Positions 1 through 18,809 of a stretch of 29,322 bases of DNA are shown here, in pieces. Under the pieces are notes generated by a model. That model was given only the letters and a program-made list of their open reading frames with translations, ran no database searches and was not told the origin of the DNA. Origin of the DNA: a virus; the IMG/VR virus record IMGVR_UViG_3300041409_000940, positions 1 through 29,322 of that record, one strand, 5' to 3'. Numbering within the stretch: the stretch's first letter is position 1; the number at the start of each line of letters is the position of its first letter. The translations under genes were made by a program, and so were the position numbers.

Positions 1-166
1 TGTTGATGTGGATCGGCTTGCCGCCGAGCATAGACCGCACGCGCTCGAGCTGCGCGGCCGTCCGCGTCAGCGTGGCGATCATCAACGAGCTCGGCACGTT
101 GGGCAGACCCGTCTCCGTGACGGTGAACTCCGCGAGGGAGAAGTGGGGCGAGAGCATCTGGGACAT
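1..166 (-). CDS. Endolysin, peptidase M15 type (N-terminal part, cut by window edge)
   Basis: The reverse strand encodes 55 residues beginning MSQMLSPHFSLAEFT and running off the left edge at ...GGKPIHIN. The opening LSPHFSLAEF, followed about 30 residues later by LERVRSMLGGKPI, matches the start of the M15A family (D-Ala-D-Ala carboxypeptidase-like phage endolysins), which cut peptide cross-links in peptidoglycan. The zinc-binding His/Asp residues would lie beyond the window, so catalysis cannot be checked. The ATG at 166 follows a GGGAGG ribosome site by seven bases and sits 19 bases after the stop of the upstream membrane-protein gene. That pairing suggests a lysis cassette. The family call rests on the N-terminal pattern alone. 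Confidence 0.72.
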   Translation of the reverse strand, partial: MSQMLSPHFSLAEFTVTETGLPNVPSSLMIATLTRTAAQLERVRSMLGGKPIHIN

Positions 167-185
167 GGAAAAGCCTCCCGGTCGG

Positions 186-776
186 CTAGGGCGTGGGGTC
201 GTCGGTATGGTGCGCGACGGCATGGTGCCGGTCGGGCCGGCCGTAGCGATGGATCATGTCCTCGTGCTCGCGGTGGAAGCGCTCGGTGAGGACTTCCTCG
301 GGCTCCGCGACCGGAACGCCGAGCATCACCGGCTCGGGGGGTGCGGTGTCGCCGCGGGCCCGCAGGCGCGCTGCGCAGTCACGAGCCCAGGCGAGCGCGC
401 TCTCGCGATCCTGGAAGAGCAGCCACTCGTTCGCCGCTCGGACCTCAAGCATGGCCTCGATGTCCGCCATGCGGGCTCGCGCCTCGTGCAGGTCGTCGGC
501 CAGCCGATCGTACATTTGCGAGACGTCGTCCAGCATGGCGCGCATGCTGCTGCGCGCGCGCTCGGACAGCTTGAATTGGTCCTGCACGGCGTCGAGGTTG
601 CGAACCATTTCGACGCGGTCGAGGCCAATACCGAAGAAGTGGACGAGCCAGCGGCGGAAGCGCCACACGGCGGCGCCAAGCCCAAGCGCCCCGGTCACGT
701 AGGGCCACGTGTGCTGGAACCACGCGAGGGCCAAGGCCACTCGGTTCGCAGACCACGTAACGAACTCGACACCCAT
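186..776 (-). CDS. Membrane protein with one transmembrane helix and coiled coil, possible lysis accessory
   Basis: A 196-residue protein of unrecognised family. Residues about 22-45 (around YVTGALGLGAAVWRF, then basic residues) form one likely transmembrane helix. Residues about 55-125 are charged and heptad-like, probably a coiled coil. The C-terminus is rich in histidine (HREHEDMIHRYGRPDRHH). I chose the ATG at 776 because GAGGTG precedes it at good spacing; an upstream in-frame start at 863 has no better signal and would run to within a few bases of the divergent lipoprotein gene. It lies 19 bases upstream of the endolysin gene, so a holin- or spanin-like role is plausible but inferred from position only. 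Confidence 0.6.
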   Translation of the reverse strand: MGVEFVTWSANRVALALAWFQHTWPYVTGALGLGAAVWRFRRWLVHFFGIGLDRVEMVRNLDAVQDQFKLSERARSSMRAMLDDVSQMYDRLADDLHEARARMADIEAMLEVRAANEWLLFQDRESALAWARDCAARLRARGDTAPPEPVMLGVPVAEPEEVLTERFHREHEDMIHRYGRPDRHHAVAHHTDDPTP

Positions 777-866
777 GTTCACCTCGGCGTGCAGAAACCG
801 ACGCGCCTCGCGCCGGCGTGGTAAGATCACGGCATACAACGCCGGGTACTTTTGGAGAAACATTAG
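777..866. other. Divergent intergenic region between lysis gene and lipoprotein gene
   Basis: This 90-base region separates the minus-strand membrane-protein gene from the plus-strand lipoprotein gene. On the plus strand TAAGAT at 822-827 resembles a -10 box, but no good -35 lies about 17 bases upstream. GGAG at 854-857 is the likely ribosome site for the GTG at 867. A promoter here is needed if the lipoprotein is expressed independently of the late operon, but the sequence support is weak. Confidence 0.3.
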
Positions 867-1829
867 GTGCAGTTGAAGTCAGTCATCAGCGTGGGCGCGC
901 TGGCACTCGCGAGTCTTCTGGTCGCATGTAGCGGCGGAGGATCATCGGCTCCGGTCGCCGGTCCTACGACGGCGCCAGCGGCGCGCCACATCGTGTTCGC
1001 GTGGTCGGGAGCAGCGCATAGCGCCTCCAGCGCCCACGCCGCGCGTCGCAGCCCCCTGGAAACCATCACGGGGACCGAGCCGATCGCGGTCGGCGCGCCC
1101 GCCAACCCCAACGACCCGAACGACCCGGCTACCCGAACGGGTGAGTCTCAGGCCGTCGTGCAGGCCCTGGAAGTCGACGCAGCGGGCTCGCCGGTGCCCA
1201 GTGCGGCGCCGAGCTTTTCGGTCGCCAACACCTCCATCGCTACGACCGCCGCACTCCCCCAGCCCTCGGGGACGCCGCTCGCCCGGGTGATCGCGGTCGC
1301 GCCGGGAGCGACGACGACGATCGTCTCGTTCCCCGACGGCTTGACCGGCAGCGTTCCGCTCGCCGCGTACGAAACGATCCACCCGTCCTGCCCGGCCAAG
1401 CCCGCGACATCGTTGCCGACCAACGCCAACGGCTACCGCTACGATCCGACGACGCTACGGCTCGTCGCCGCGAGTGATCCAAGTACCGCCGACGTCTACC
1501 TCACCGGACCACAGTGCGATGGGCCGTTCTTCGACGGCGTGTCAACGTCCGCCGTCCTGCACATGCCGGCCGGGTACAGCTCACTTCCGGAGAGCGAGCC
1601 GATCGGCAACGCGTTGACGGTGGGAACGTTCACGCCGAGCGGCACGTCGTTCGATCTGGCGAACTCCCAGAACTTGCCTTCCTTCCTGGTCATCAAGACC
1701 CAGACGCCCGGGGTGTTCATCAAGTGGCGCATCACGGGGTTTCAGTGCTCCGGAACGCCGTGCGCGCGCGGGATCGAGATCGATGGTGATGCGCTGGCGA
1801 GCAACAGCGCGATGGTGTTCGCCTACTAA
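867..1829 (+). CDS. Secreted lipoprotein with Ig-like (BIG-type) segment, candidate moron
   Basis: The only convincing plus-strand gene, 320 residues. It starts with GTG at 867, nine bases after GGAG. Residues 1-21 form a lipoprotein signal peptide (K4, hydrophobic core, lipobox LVAC with the modified cysteine at 21), followed by a Gly/Ser/Pro/Ala linker. Residues about 95-165 (QALEVDAAGSPVP..., NTSIATT..., IAVAPGATTTIVSF) resemble a bacterial Ig-like BIG2 repeat. The rest is beta-rich with two Cys pairs and no family I recognise. It is transcribed against the whole phage operon between tail and lysis genes, as expected of a moron or lysogenic-conversion gene. Its TAA stop (1827-1829) overlaps the stop of the convergent gene. 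The lipoprotein call is firm; its function is unknown. Confidence 0.75.
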   Translation: MQLKSVISVGALALASLLVACSGGGSSAPVAGPTTAPAARHIVFAWSGAAHSASSAHAARRSPLETITGTEPIAVGAPANPNDPNDPATRTGESQAVVQALEVDAAGSPVPSAAPSFSVANTSIATTAALPQPSGTPLARVIAVAPGATTTIVSFPDGLTGSVPLAAYETIHPSCPAKPATSLPTNANGYRYDPTTLRLVAASDPSTADVYLTGPQCDGPFFDGVSTSAVLHMPAGYSSLPESEPIGNALTVGTFTPSGTSFDLANSQNLPSFLVIKTQTPGVFIKWRITGFQCSGTPCARGIEIDGDALASNSAMVFAY

Positions 1830-2143
1830 ACGTTTACGTCGAAGAGGCCGCCCACGCCGAGTGCGGTCGTGAGCTTCTGAATCGCCGACCACGCCGTATC
1901 GGAAGCACCCACGCCAAAGCCGTTGAGCAGTGCGGCGTGGGTGCTTCGCATTGGCGCCGGTGACAAGTGCGAATCGAATACAGTGACACCCGGGATCGCA
2001 CTAAGCTCAGCCCGTCGCGTCGGGTGCGAGGCGTACTCGACGAACAGCGTGACGCCCGCCTTGGTGACGGTGTGCACCACGCCCGCAGCGAGAAGCGGCG
2101 TGGCGCCATTCAGCGACAGGCCGTAGATCTTCGTGGTCTGCAT
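1826..2143 (-). CDS. Small phage protein downstream of the receptor-binding protein
   Basis: A 105-residue protein of unknown function beginning MQTTKIYGLSLNGATPLLA. It has no signal peptide or clear transmembrane helix. The composition suggests a small alpha/beta domain (VVHTVTKAGVTLFVEYAS). The ATG at 2143 follows GAGG by seven bases and lies nine bases after the stop of the large tail gene, so it closes the tail module. Its TAG stop (1826-1828) overlaps the TAA of the plus-strand lipoprotein gene. A tail-fibre accessory role is possible from position only. Confidence 0.65.
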   Translation of the reverse strand: MQTTKIYGLSLNGATPLLAAGVVHTVTKAGVTLFVEYASHPTRRAELSAIPGVTVFDSHLSPAPMRSTHAALLNGFGVGASDTAWSAIQKLTTALGVGGLFDVNV

Positions 2144-2152
2144 GGTTTGACC

Positions 2153-5100
2153 TCAGAAGGTGATGCGGCCGCCGCCACCTGGCGGATGCCCGCCGACCGA
2201 TCCGCCTCCGCCGCCGGTTCCGCTGCCACCGGTCGTCGCAACGACCGTGCAGTTTGCGGTGATCGGGGTGTTGTAGTCCTGGAACGCTGCAGCGACTTGC
2301 GCTGCAGTCGCTGAGACGGTAGACGGCCCATAGAGGCACGTCAGCGCGTTCGTCAGCGAGTTGTACGCGAAGACGAAGTAGTACGTGCCGGGAAGCGAGA
2401 CGTTCCACCACAGGCTCGACGTGAACGGTGACGTCGAACCGTCCGGCCACGTGATGGTGTAGCTACTCGTGCCCTTATCCGGCAGGCTCGATCCGTTTCC
2501 ATGCACTCCGATGAGAAAGAGCGTACCGTTGCCGCTGGTATCCTGCCAGTACAGCGTGATGGTGGGCGTCAACGGCTGCACGATGGCGCCCAGCATCTTC
2601 ATGGGCGAAGAGCTGGTCGAGAAGCCATCGCTGTCGTAGGGGGCGCCGTCGACGTAGTCCTGGGTCTTGCCGCCCTCGTGGAACATCGGCAGGAAGAACG
2701 AGAACGAGCCGCCGGCTGTCGAGCCGTACGCTTCGACCATGAACCATATCAGGCTCACGCCGCTGGGCACCGTGAAGGTGCCGATGATCGGGACCCACGT
2801 GAGCGTCGTCGTGGTCTGGAGCGGCACGGCGGAGGCGCCCGCGCCCGCTGTGTAGAGCGCGCCCGCCGTGCCGGCCGGCGCAGTCGCGGAGCCATTGTAC
2901 TGCGTTGTCGATCCGACGTTGGAGATCAGCACACGCAAGGCGGTCCCGGCCGAGCCGCTCAGCAACGCGCCCAGGCAGGCATAGGTGTACGTCTGGCCGG
3001 GCTTGACCCGCAGCAGCCGGTAGAAGCCGCCGAAGCTCCCCGTGTACGAGACGGTCGGCATCGAATAGGTGACGCCGTTGGCGGTGTAAGCACCGCCAGT
3101 GTTCGACATGGTGGCCGGGCCGTACGCGGTCCAGCCGTAGTTGTTGGCGTAGTTGCCCTGAATGAAGCGGCCGTCGGTGATGTAGTTGCGCTGCTGGGCG
3201 AGCTGCACGTCGGCGGCGTGCCGGCCGATCAGAACGCGTCCCGACGAGTCGGCGACCGCGGCCGTGTCGGACGACGATGCACCGAGCAGGTGCCGGCCCG
3301 CAATCATGCCGGGCTTGGTGTAGAGCCCGTCCGCGCCGGGCGTCGACGCGATGGTCGACTGCACCGCGGTGTGGTTGAGGTCGAAGACGATCCGGCCGTC
3401 CGTGCCGACCACCGCATCGGTGATCGGGAAGACCGGGCTGCCGGAGATCGGCTTGAGGTGCCCGCGGCCCCACTGGCCAGGCGGGGCGTCACCGCTCATC
3501 ACCGCGGGGATCACGGAAACGTTGTCCCAGCGGGCGTCGCAGTACAGGTTCGCACCCGAGCTCACTGCCGAGCCGGTGGTGTTGACCGCCGTCACGCGGA
3601 TGAAGACGAGCGCGTAGCCGGCGCCGGCCGGGGGCACCAGCGTGCTCGCCGCGCCCGTAAAGCCCACCCCGGGCGCCAGGCTCTGGATCGACACGTCGGC
3701 GCCGACTTGATTGGTGCCCGCCGTGACGTCCGCGAGGGTCGGGAAGTAGCGCAGGAACGAGTCGGCGGTGAAGCTGACGCCCGCTGGCGGGTTCGCGTTC
3801 TTGGCGACCGCGAGCATCTGCGACTGGCTGATCTGGCGGCTGTTCGCGGGCAGCGAGAGCGGGTTGCTCTGGATCGCGATCGCCGTCGTGCCGGTGGGGA
3901 TCGTCGCGCTGCTGTTGACGCGGATCAGGAGGGAGTTGGCGCCGCTGACCTTTGAAGTCGGATCGGCCGAGAACGTGAACAGCGCCGGGACGGGATTGGA
4001 CTGGACGTACCAGCCGGACGGAACGCCCGCAACGACGGCCTCGCCGCCACCATTATCGACCAGTTCGCTGCCGACCGAGCCCATGGACGTCCCGGAGATC
4101 GGCTGTGCCTGGGTCGTCGCGATCGGGTAGACCTGCGTGGGCTGGTTGTTGGCGTCGAAGAAGACCGCGCCGATGTTCTGGGCGATGCCCGCGGTGAGCG
4201 CGCACGTCATGGCGGTCGGGAGCGTGGAACCAGCGGCGTAGTTCGCCTCCTGCCAGTTCGCGTAGTTCGTGTCGGTCCCACCGTTGGTCGCTCCGGCCGC
4301 CGCAGTCTGCACGACCAGCGCGAACGCAGTGAGCAGATTCGCGAGGGGCGGGTTCGCCGGGGTCGTCGTCGGGATCGTGATGGCCAGCGTGAGGCTCACG
4401 TTCGCGACCGGGCCCGGGCTTCCAGGGGTCCCGCTGATGTAGCTCGCGACCGAGCCGGAGGCGGAGAGGGTCGTTCCGCTCGGCCAGCTTTCGTTTGACC
4501 CGCCCAGCGTCCGCCGCGGCACTCCCGAAGGCGTGGTGTAGAGCGTGACGACCGGCGTCGTTCCGCCGAACCCGTCCACCCCCATGAAGCCCATGACGTA
4601 CCGGTTGCCCTTGGGAACCGTGTAGAAGAGGTTGTAGGAGCCGGCGGTGTTCGCTGATGTCGGCGGGCCAGCGATTTCCCACTGGGTCGTTCCGAAGACA
4701 GCGCGGACGGGCTGGAGATAGGCCTCCCAGGCAGCGGTTCCGCTCGCCGTGCCGCCCGGCGGCGTGATGGCGGGGTCCGTGGTGAACGCGATCGTGCAGC
4801 CGTAGTTGACGCCGGGGAGTGAGTAGCCGATCCGGTCCACGATCGTGCTTACCGTGGCCGGAGTCGCCGGCATGCTGAAGCCGACCGGAATGCGCGGCAG
4901 GGAGCTGGGCGGCGTGCCGACGGTTGTCGAGGAGTGAACGCTCGTCGTGCCGACCAGGACGCGGCTGCTCACCGACCCAGCCGACGTGACGTAGCGCCCG
5001 TAGAGGTCCCACTGCGCGCTCGGGTCGACCGTAAGGTGGGGGATCGTGCCGCTTCCGGCTGCGTTGGACCCGGAGCCGCCGACGATCGGGATCGTTTCGA

Positions 5101-14795: not shown

Positions 14796-15215
14796 CTACG
14801 ACCACGCCCGCCCGCGCGCGACCTGAGCCTGTAGCGTGCGGGTGAAGAGGTAGTGGTTCACCGCGAGAACCAGCGAGCGCAAACCACTCTCATCGACGAT
14901 GACGTCGTTCGGGGCGAGCGCCGGGAAGGCGCCACGGCCGTTTGCGAGCACGGTGTACGTGATGCCGTCGACGACGACAGTCCCGTTCGGCGCGACACCG
15001 CGGTAGGCAGCGGGTGCCAGCCCGTCCAGAATGAGCAGCGCGTCTTGCACGTAGTCCTTGCCCTCGACCGCGATCGTCGTCAGCGCCCCCCGCGCTCCTT
15101 GGAGAAGTGCGGGGACGTCCGAGTTCAGCGGATCGTCTCTGGTCAGAACCGACCGGGTCGCGGACCGGCCGGAAACGTCGCGCCGAATGATCGTGACCCG
15201 GTTTGGCCGATTCAT
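14796..15215 (-). CDS. Putative head-closure (stopper) protein
   Basis: A 139-residue protein, MNRPNRVTIIRRDVSGRS..., with strand-rich order and DYVQDALLILDGLAP and GITYTVLANGRGAFP elements. Between the connector and the gp10-like gene the usual product is the stopper (SPP1 gp16 / phage head-tail joining family), which plugs the head before tail joining. A small beta-barrel with RDV..GR and a late ITYTVL strand fits that. The ATG at 15215 overlaps the connector stop as TGATG. The family assignment depends mainly on synteny. Confidence 0.55.
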   Translation of the reverse strand: MNRPNRVTIIRRDVSGRSATRSVLTRDDPLNSDVPALLQGARGALTTIAVEGKDYVQDALLILDGLAPAAYRGVAPNGTVVVDGITYTVLANGRGAFPALAPNDVIVDESGLRSLVLAVNHYLFTRTLQAQVARGRAWS

Positions 15216-17571: not shown

Positions 17572-18753
17572 TTAGGCGGCGAGGTTGGCGGCGTACGTGG
17601 CGGCCGACGTGTTGGAGATCTTCAGCCGGACCTTGCCGAGGTAGTACGGGAGCGCTTGCTCGAGCGAAGCGAACCAGTAGACGGCGCGCAACATCCGAGC
17701 GGTGCGGTCGGAGAACATCGGGATCTCGACCACGACCGGGCCCTCGGAGCCCAGCCACACGATCTCCAGCCCGCGCGAGTCGGTCACGAAGATGTCGATG
17801 TACGTGCCCGAGCCGGCGATGGAGTAGTAGCCGGTGGTGAGGTCGCCCGCCATCGGGTAGTACGGCACGACGCGACCGTCGCCCATGCGGACGCCGCCCA
17901 GGGTGAGCCCCGGGATCACCTCGACGACCGGCGCGACGATGTTGAGCTTGGACTCCCACTCGCGCTCGATGTAGGTCGAGCCCTCGCCCGGCCCGAGGAT
18001 GAGGTCCACTTTGCCGCCCGCGTTGCGAACGCGCTGTGCGACGTCTTGGATCGCGTGCGAGATCGTGAACGCCTTGGGGTCGTACCCGGTGGTTGTGTCG
18101 ATCGTGATGACGTTGCGGCCGGGCGAGTACACCTCGGTCGTGTAGCGCATCCCGCGGAACCCGGTGGGGTCGTAGACGCCGAACTGCGTGTAGGCGCCGG
18201 ACTGGCTGCTCGCGGCTTGCACGTTGTGCATGCGGAACGCCTCGGACTGGAAGTCCTGCGAAATCTTCAGCAGCCCGCCTTCGACTTCGTTGTCGGTGAC
18301 GTCGGGTCCACCGGCCGCTCGCGACCCGAACACGGACTTGAGCGAGGCGCCGCGGATGGCGCCGAACAGCGCGACGTTCATGAAGTCGTCGACGTAGGTG
18401 TTCCGGTCCTCGACGAACACGCCGGTTTCCGGAACCGACAGCGGAGTATTGGGGTCGAACTGCGAGAACCCGGTCTGCCGGCGAAACGTGTCGGTGATGC
18501 CGTTGGCTTCCCGCTTGGGCAGCAGCTCGATCAGCGGAAACTCGCGAGCGAACTGCTCGTACAGCTGCGTCATCGCTTGGTCGGAGATCAGCGGGCCGAT
18601 CGAGGTAGAATCGCCGACGGCCTTCTGCGCGAGCGAGAGCCCGACCATGCGCCGAATCTCGGGATCGTTCCAGCTGAACAGCTTGGGCTTCTTGGTGGGG
18701 TTGCCTTTCCGCCACAGCGGATAGGTCCCGGCAGCGTGCATCATCTCGGGCAT
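17572..18753 (-). CDS. Major capsid protein (HK97 fold)
   Basis: A 393-residue protein beginning MPEMMHAAGTYPLWRKGNP. The order of elements fits the HK97-fold capsid family: an N-terminal helix arm, an E-loop-like strand region (NVALFGAIRGASLKSVFG), a long spine-like helix (AFTISHAIQDVAQRVRNAGG followed by VDLILGPGEG), and a C-terminal strand set (TYIDIFVTDSRGLEIVWLG, RAVYWFASLEQALPYYLGKV). Location directly downstream of the protease-scaffold gene is diagnostic of the head module. GGAGG lies seven bases before the ATG at 18753. Hairpins lie immediately upstream and downstream. The N-terminal part shows no cleavage signal that I can name. Confidence 0.88.
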   Translation of the reverse strand: MPEMMHAAGTYPLWRKGNPTKKPKLFSWNDPEIRRMVGLSLAQKAVGDSTSIGPLISDQAMTQLYEQFAREFPLIELLPKREANGITDTFRRQTGFSQFDPNTPLSVPETGVFVEDRNTYVDDFMNVALFGAIRGASLKSVFGSRAAGGPDVTDNEVEGGLLKISQDFQSEAFRMHNVQAASSQSGAYTQFGVYDPTGFRGMRYTTEVYSPGRNVITIDTTTGYDPKAFTISHAIQDVAQRVRNAGGKVDLILGPGEGSTYIEREWESKLNIVAPVVEVIPGLTLGGVRMGDGRVVPYYPMAGDLTTGYYSIAGSGTYIDIFVTDSRGLEIVWLGSEGPVVVEIPMFSDRTARMLRAVYWFASLEQALPYYLGKVRLKISNTSAATYAANLAA

Positions 18754-18772: not shown

Positions 18773-18809
18773 GCGAATAGCCCGCTCGGTATTCCGACGG
18801 GCTATTCGC
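18773..18809 (-). terminator. Strong hairpin between protease-scaffold and major capsid genes
   Basis: GCGAATAGCCCG at 18773-18784 pairs perfectly with CGGGCTATTCGC at 18798-18809, and the 13-base loop carries an inner TCGG/CCGA stem, so up to 16 pairs form. It sits in the 71-base gap just upstream of the capsid ribosome site. Only TTTCC follows, so it is a poor full terminator. An attenuator, RNA processing site or message-stabilising 5' structure fits better. Confidence 0.6.

What the first reader, a model, noticed from the sequence alone, without database searches (positions are those of the whole stretch)
867..1829. Opposite-strand lipoprotein gene inside the late operon, a candidate moron
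A lipobox-bearing protein with a BIG-like segment is the only recognisable plus-strand gene and breaks the minus-strand operon between tail and lysis genes. That is the classic place for morons, which alter the lysogen surface, for example in superinfection exclusion or adhesion. If the element is a prophage, this is its most likely contribution to host phenotype.
Basis: partly seen in the sequence, partly recalled or inferred. Interest (0 to 1): 0.6.

Follow-up and report, generated by a model that had tools for sequence, protein, structure and literature searches.

The report
Orphan lipoprotein cargo gene in phage
A bacterial virus known only from an environmental sequence record carries, backwards inside its block of tail and lysis genes, one extra gene for a lipid-anchored surface protein that its nearest relatives lack; it is most likely a passenger gene that changes the surface of bacteria carrying the virus, a familiar kind of gene with a previously unseen protein.

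Summary
ORF 867-1829 (+, GTG start) is a real gene: phage-like codon usage, a Shine-Dalgarno site and a canonical lipobox (LVAC, Cys21). It is the only lipoprotein and the only credible plus-strand gene in the record, and lies exactly between the tail module and the lysis genes. A candidate promoter of its own (TGgTAAGAT, 819-827, the only such site in the window) lies 39 nt upstream. The three relatives recovered that share this tail module (G005, G006, G007) have no such gene at the junction. G007 still carries host chromosomal genes and G002 has integrases, so the group includes temperate phages. This supports a moron (accessory lysogen gene), placed rather like lambda bor.

What the protein does is not shown. 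No homologue was found in IMG/VR, GTDB species genomes, phage or plasmid records, Pfam, PHROGs, NCBIfam, PADLOC or the PDB. The 'BIG-like' segment is only hinted at (Big_1, E 0.07, below cut-off), and AlphaFold without homologues failed (pLDDT 33). Superinfection exclusion is my preferred function, by inference only. It is a new protein of a known kind, of modest interest.

The parts
867..1829 (+). Lipoprotein gene, 320-aa precursor, 300-aa mature protein (about 30 kDa, pI 4.9)
   Evidence: Own-frame codon bias, Shine-Dalgarno site, lipobox; no homologue found
867..929 (+). Signal peptide (residues 1-20) and lipidated Cys21
   Evidence: MQLKSVISVGALALASLLVAC; 1 of 1196 ORFs passes the same test
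1140..1376 (+). Residues 92-170, the segment called BIG-like
   Evidence: Only Big_1 at E 0.07, under the cut-off; no Big_2 match
1380..1826 (+). C-terminal part (residues 172-320) with four Cys (175, 217, 294, 299); beta-strand-rich in an unusable low-confidence model
   Evidence: pLDDT 33.7
819..827 (+). Candidate extended -10 promoter TGgTAAGAT
   Evidence: Only TGNTAAGAT in the window, 39 nt before the start; leader 820-866 in the top 0.54% for A+T. No canonical sigma-70 site
854..857 (+). Shine-Dalgarno GGAG
   Evidence: Sequence
1826..2143 (-). gp105, last gene of the tail module; its stop overlaps the lipoprotein stop by 4 bp (convergent)
   Evidence: Weakly similar to the 166-aa protein of G005 in the same position (E 0.001)
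1902..1947 (.). Longest perfect inverted repeat of the window (14-bp arms); possible transcription barrier for either strand, no U tract
186..776 (-). gp225 (196 aa from the likely start at 776), hydrophobic N-terminus and helical remainder; lysis-module position
   Evidence: GAGGTG Shine-Dalgarno before the ATG at 776; hydrophobicity
2..223 (-). N-terminal part of an endolysin, cut by the record end
   Evidence: phrog_894 E 1.2e-4

Best explanation
A moron: an accessory gene for a surface lipoprotein, lying backwards at the tail/lysis junction of a probably temperate siphovirus. Shown: a real gene, a lipoprotein signal, the opposite strand, and absence from relatives at the same site. Inferred: it is transcribed from its own promoter (extended -10 at 819-827) while the late operon is silent, that is in the lysogen. 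The protein is exported by Sec, lipidated at Cys21 and anchored in the envelope, with an A/P/S/T-rich tether holding the Cys-containing C-terminal part away from the membrane. During lytic growth the late minus-strand transcript, which must read through this gene to reach gp225 and the endolysin unless those have their own promoter, would oppose its expression. Most likely effect: it protects the lysogen from superinfecting phages at adsorption or DNA entry (about 35% within this reading); otherwise it changes adhesion or other surface properties.
For: Own-frame codon bias. Lipobox passed by 1 of 1196 ORFs. No other membrane segment. Opposite strand, convergent 4-bp stop overlap with gp105. 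The only TGNTAAGAT in the window lies 39 nt before the start in a leader in the top 0.54% for A+T. G005: the gp105 counterpart ends at L014:15095 and the 140-aa protein starts at 15115, so there is no room for a gene. G007: 116 bp between tail hub and 145-aa protein. G006: no such gene after its tail protein. Lipobox scans of relatives found none like it. Temperate relatives: G007 is flanked by host malate synthase, tRNAs and a DEAD-box helicase; G002 has two tyrosine recombinases. A published transcriptome study calls positions antisense to prophage lytic genes characteristic of moron loci (PMC7067206).
Against: No homologue anywhere, so no function transfers. Codon usage and G+C are those of the phage (z -0.9, 0.681), so there is no compositional sign of recent acquisition. 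No canonical sigma-70 promoter or intrinsic terminator was found. No integrase in this record, which is a fragment. Only three relatives cover the junction, at about 40-45% identity.
Confidence: 0.65

Rival explanations
1. It is a lysis protein: a spanin lipoprotein, since spanins sit beside endolysin genes and gp225 (hydrophobic N-terminus, helical remainder) could be the inner-membrane partner.
For: Position next to gp225 and the endolysin. No other lipoprotein ORF of 30 aa or more near the lysis genes of the window.
Against: 320 aa is far larger than known o-spanins (own knowledge). It is on the strand opposite to the lysis genes. It has no C-terminal membrane segment, which a u-spanin needs. 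Relatives with comparable lysis-module genes lack it.
Confidence: 0.07
2. It is expressed in the lytic phase and acts on the infected cell or the released progeny: for example a lipoprotein that masks the receptor late in infection so that progeny do not readsorb to debris, as T5 Llp does for FhuA.
For: Phage-like codon usage and G+C suggest long residence in phage genomes. Lipoproteins that block the receptor during lytic infection are known (own knowledge: T5 Llp).
Against: Lies against the late operon, so late expression would face antisense transcription. The group includes temperate phages.
Confidence: 0.15
3. It is a recently captured host lipoprotein gene with no selected role in the phage, or a neutral passenger.
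For: A/P/S/T-rich tether-type lipoprotein; the host flank of G007 also holds a lipoprotein gene, an NHL-repeat protein. Absent from relatives.
Against: The frame is intact with codon bias maintained; tightly packed between neighbours, with a plausible leader. The lipoprotein in the G007 flank is unrelated.
Confidence: 0.1

Closest known systems
Lambda Bor (lipoprotein expressed in lysogens, encoded beside the lysis genes on the strand opposite to the late operon)
   Same: Lipoprotein gene on the opposite strand beside the lysis genes (in J02459 the frame reads on the minus strand at 46459-46752, just past Rz).
   Different: 97 aa against 320 aa; no sequence similarity (BLASTP E 0.53); Bor lies beyond the lysis genes, this gene between tail and lysis genes; expression untested here.
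Ltp of Streptococcus thermophilus phage TP-J34 (superinfection-exclusion lipoprotein, described as a moron)
   Same: Phage-encoded surface lipoprotein (PMC3952083).
   Different: Ltp lies in the lysogeny module of phages of Gram-positive hosts and acts on the tape measure protein of incoming phage; here there is no detected sequence relation, the place is the tail/lysis junction, and exclusion is untested.

Membership tests
Moron / prophage accessory gene | Extra gene absent from otherwise colinear relatives | tested here: met
   Absent at the tail/lysis junction of G005, G006 and G007
Moron / prophage accessory gene | Own promoter and terminator | tested here: inconclusive
   One candidate extended -10; no canonical promoter or terminator; hairpin without U tract
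Moron / prophage accessory gene | Expressed in the lysogen while lytic genes are silent | not testable with these tools
   No expression data
Moron / prophage accessory gene | Carried by a temperate phage | tested here: inconclusive
   No integrase in this fragment; relatives G007 (host flank) and G002 (integrases) are temperate
Bacterial lipoprotein | Signal peptide with lipobox and no further membrane segment | tested here: met
   LVAC at Cys21; hydrophobicity profile
BIG-domain protein (Big_1/Big_2) | Match over the curated cut-off | tested here: not met
   No Big_2 match; Big_1 13.7 bits against 34.9
Lambda Bor family | Sequence homology | tested here: not met
   No Pfam match; BLASTP with lambda Bor E 0.53
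Spanin | Small lipoprotein co-transcribed with the lysis genes, or lipobox plus C-terminal membrane segment | tested here: not met
   320 aa, opposite strand, no C-terminal membrane segment
Known anti-phage defence families | Match to a PADLOC model | tested here: not met
   No match at E up to 1

The most novel reading that the evidence does not exclude
The protein is the first member of a new family of phage-encoded surface lipoproteins that block superinfection in a poorly known host lineage, switched by the lysis/lysogeny decision because the late transcript runs antisense through its gene.
Probability: 0.15. Interest if true: 0.5.

Novelty: new member of a known kind. Interest (0 to 1): 0.27.

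Why it matters
It adds a lipoprotein without known relatives to the catalogue of candidate lysogen-modifying phage genes, in a phage group with no close match among the phage records searched. It also gives a site (the tail/lysis junction) at which to look for further cargo in this group. If it does block superinfection, it would extend surface exclusion by phage lipoproteins to a poorly known host lineage.

Tried and rejected
Homologue searches that found nothing: tblastn in phages and plasmids, 8-mer-seeded scans of IMG/VR and GTDB genomes, Pfam, PHROGs, NCBIfam, PADLOC and PDB, sub-segments against Pfam. A Cys-motif DNA pattern for the C-terminal part gave only four chance matches. AlphaFold without an alignment, on the whole protein and on the C-terminal part, gave unusable models (pLDDT 32.5 and 33.7), so no fold search was made. 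Rfam: nothing. Direct repeats flanking the gene, as a sign of insertion: none convincing. Terminase relatives G003 and G004 are too distant. G002 appears to have a different, sheathed-type tail (my reading of a 648-aa product, not tested), so its junction is not comparable. A terminase scan of GTDB genomes for the host found nothing. Spanin, structural protein and known defence gene were considered and set aside for the reasons given in the rivals.

Full report
What was checked. The window is a complete IMG/VR record of 29,322 bases, linear, so probably a fragment. The ORF at 867-1829 (+) is present as described: 320 aa, GTG start, an in-frame stop directly upstream at 864-866 and a Shine-Dalgarno GGAG at 854-857. 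At about 66% G+C, length alone is no proof, since a 484-aa plus-strand shadow ORF exists in the same window (2501-3955). I therefore trained a codon model on the minus-strand phage genes. The ORF scores 0.308 bits per codon in its own frame against 0.143 or less in the other five frames. One 93-aa antisense ORF scores higher per codon but carries far less total evidence.

Lipoprotein signal. The N-terminus MQLKSVISVGALALASLLVAC|SGGG is canonical. The same test was passed by 1 of 1196 ORFs in the window and relatives, and by 0.3% of shuffled N-termini. No other membrane segment exists. The mature protein is 300 aa, 48% A+P+S+T, with four further Cys in the C-terminal part (175, 217, 294, 299).

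Place. On one side lie the tail genes: Dit (phrog_33, E 2.2e-14), a 1689-aa tail protein and gp105. On the other lie gp225, probably starting at the ATG at 776, which has a GAGGTG Shine-Dalgarno, and the start of an endolysin (phrog_894, E 1.2e-4). The gene therefore sits exactly at the tail/lysis boundary, with a convergent 4-bp stop overlap with gp105 and a 90-bp divergent leader before gp225.

Relatives. Terminase, portal and tail searches of IMG/VR gave several records. G005 and G006 are colinear through the structural genes (Dit 41-42%, tail hub 44-45% identity). G007 shares Dit and tail hub (40-41%) and portal (40%). None has the lipoprotein at the junction. In G005 the counterpart of gp105 (E 0.001) ends 19 bp before the 140-aa protein. 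In G007 116 bp separate the tail hub gene from the 145-aa protein. In G006 no such gene follows the tail protein, though that record ends within the next few genes. Searches of the related records with the lipoprotein itself were empty, and lipobox scans found none like it. The lysis enzyme differs between relatives: a YkuD-domain protein in G005 and G007 (the G005 match, 22.1 bits, is just under the 23.4 cut-off).

Life style. The window has no integrase. G007, however, still carries host chromosomal genes at its edge: malate synthase (PF01274, E 4.6e-47), tRNA-Thr, tRNA-Gly and tRNA-Tyr, and a DEAD-box helicase. G002 carries two tyrosine recombinases. The group therefore includes temperate phages; for this phage that is an inference. 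The host is unknown. The NHL-repeat lipoprotein in the G007 flank reminds me of Eremiobacterota proteins, but that is a recollection and was not tested.

Regulation. The simple sigma-70 scan found nothing. The leader 820-866 is in the top 0.54% of the window for A+T and holds the only TGNTAAGAT of the record (819-827, + strand), an extended -10 type, 39 nt before the start. The longest perfect inverted repeat of the window (1902-1947, 14-bp arms) lies 73-118 nt past the stop, inside gp105, and folds well on both strands (z -3.3 and -3.9). It lacks a U tract, and it also encodes gp105 residues that align with the G005 protein, so a barrier role is only a suggestion. Because gp225 and the endolysin lie beyond the gene, the late transcript must either read through it antisense or restart.

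What it is. These facts fit an accessory (moron) gene better than a structural or lysis gene. A transcriptome study describes a position antisense to prophage lytic genes as characteristic of accessory loci, and names bor among the few lambda genes expressed in lysogens (PMC7067206). In lambda the Bor frame reads opposite to the late operon just past Rz. There is no sequence similarity to Bor. Function is open. Exclusion of superinfecting phage at the surface, as shown for the lipoprotein Ltp (PMC3952083), is my first guess; adhesion or another surface change is the alternative.

Limits. No homologue was found in any library or collection. The 8-mer-seeded scans reach only close relatives, so remote homologues may exist. 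The BIG-like label is not supported at threshold. Structure prediction without an alignment failed. The absence argument rests on three relatives of about 40-45% identity, and codon usage gives no sign of recent transfer.

Noticed in passing
window 1902-1947: Longest perfect inverted repeat in the window (14-bp arms, 18-nt loop), inside the gp105 coding sequence; strand-symmetric, no U tract.
   Followed up: partly
window 18773-18809: Second longest perfect inverted repeat (12-bp arms, 13-nt loop), between the putative major capsid gene (17572-18753) and the head protease gene; candidate terminator or processing hairpin.
   Followed up: no
L027 1-5300 (record G007): Relative with a host flank: malate synthase, three tRNAs, DEAD-box helicase and an NHL-repeat lipoprotein at the phage edge; a lead to the host lineage of this phage group.
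   Followed up: partly
L009:4596-5822 (-), record G002: Phosphoesterase-family protein (PF04185, E 1.6e-35) in a related phage record, a possible cargo gene.
   Followed up: partly
L017:61-1131 (-), record G006: 356-aa protein with a signal-peptide-like N-terminus and no Pfam match, between the counterparts of window genes g14796 and g14304; another possible cargo gene in the group.
   Followed up: partly
L014:15539-16030 and L027:6626-7186: Relatives carry a YkuD (L,D-transpeptidase) domain protein in the lysis position where the window has a phrog_894-type endolysin: the lysis enzyme is swapped within the group.
   Followed up: partly
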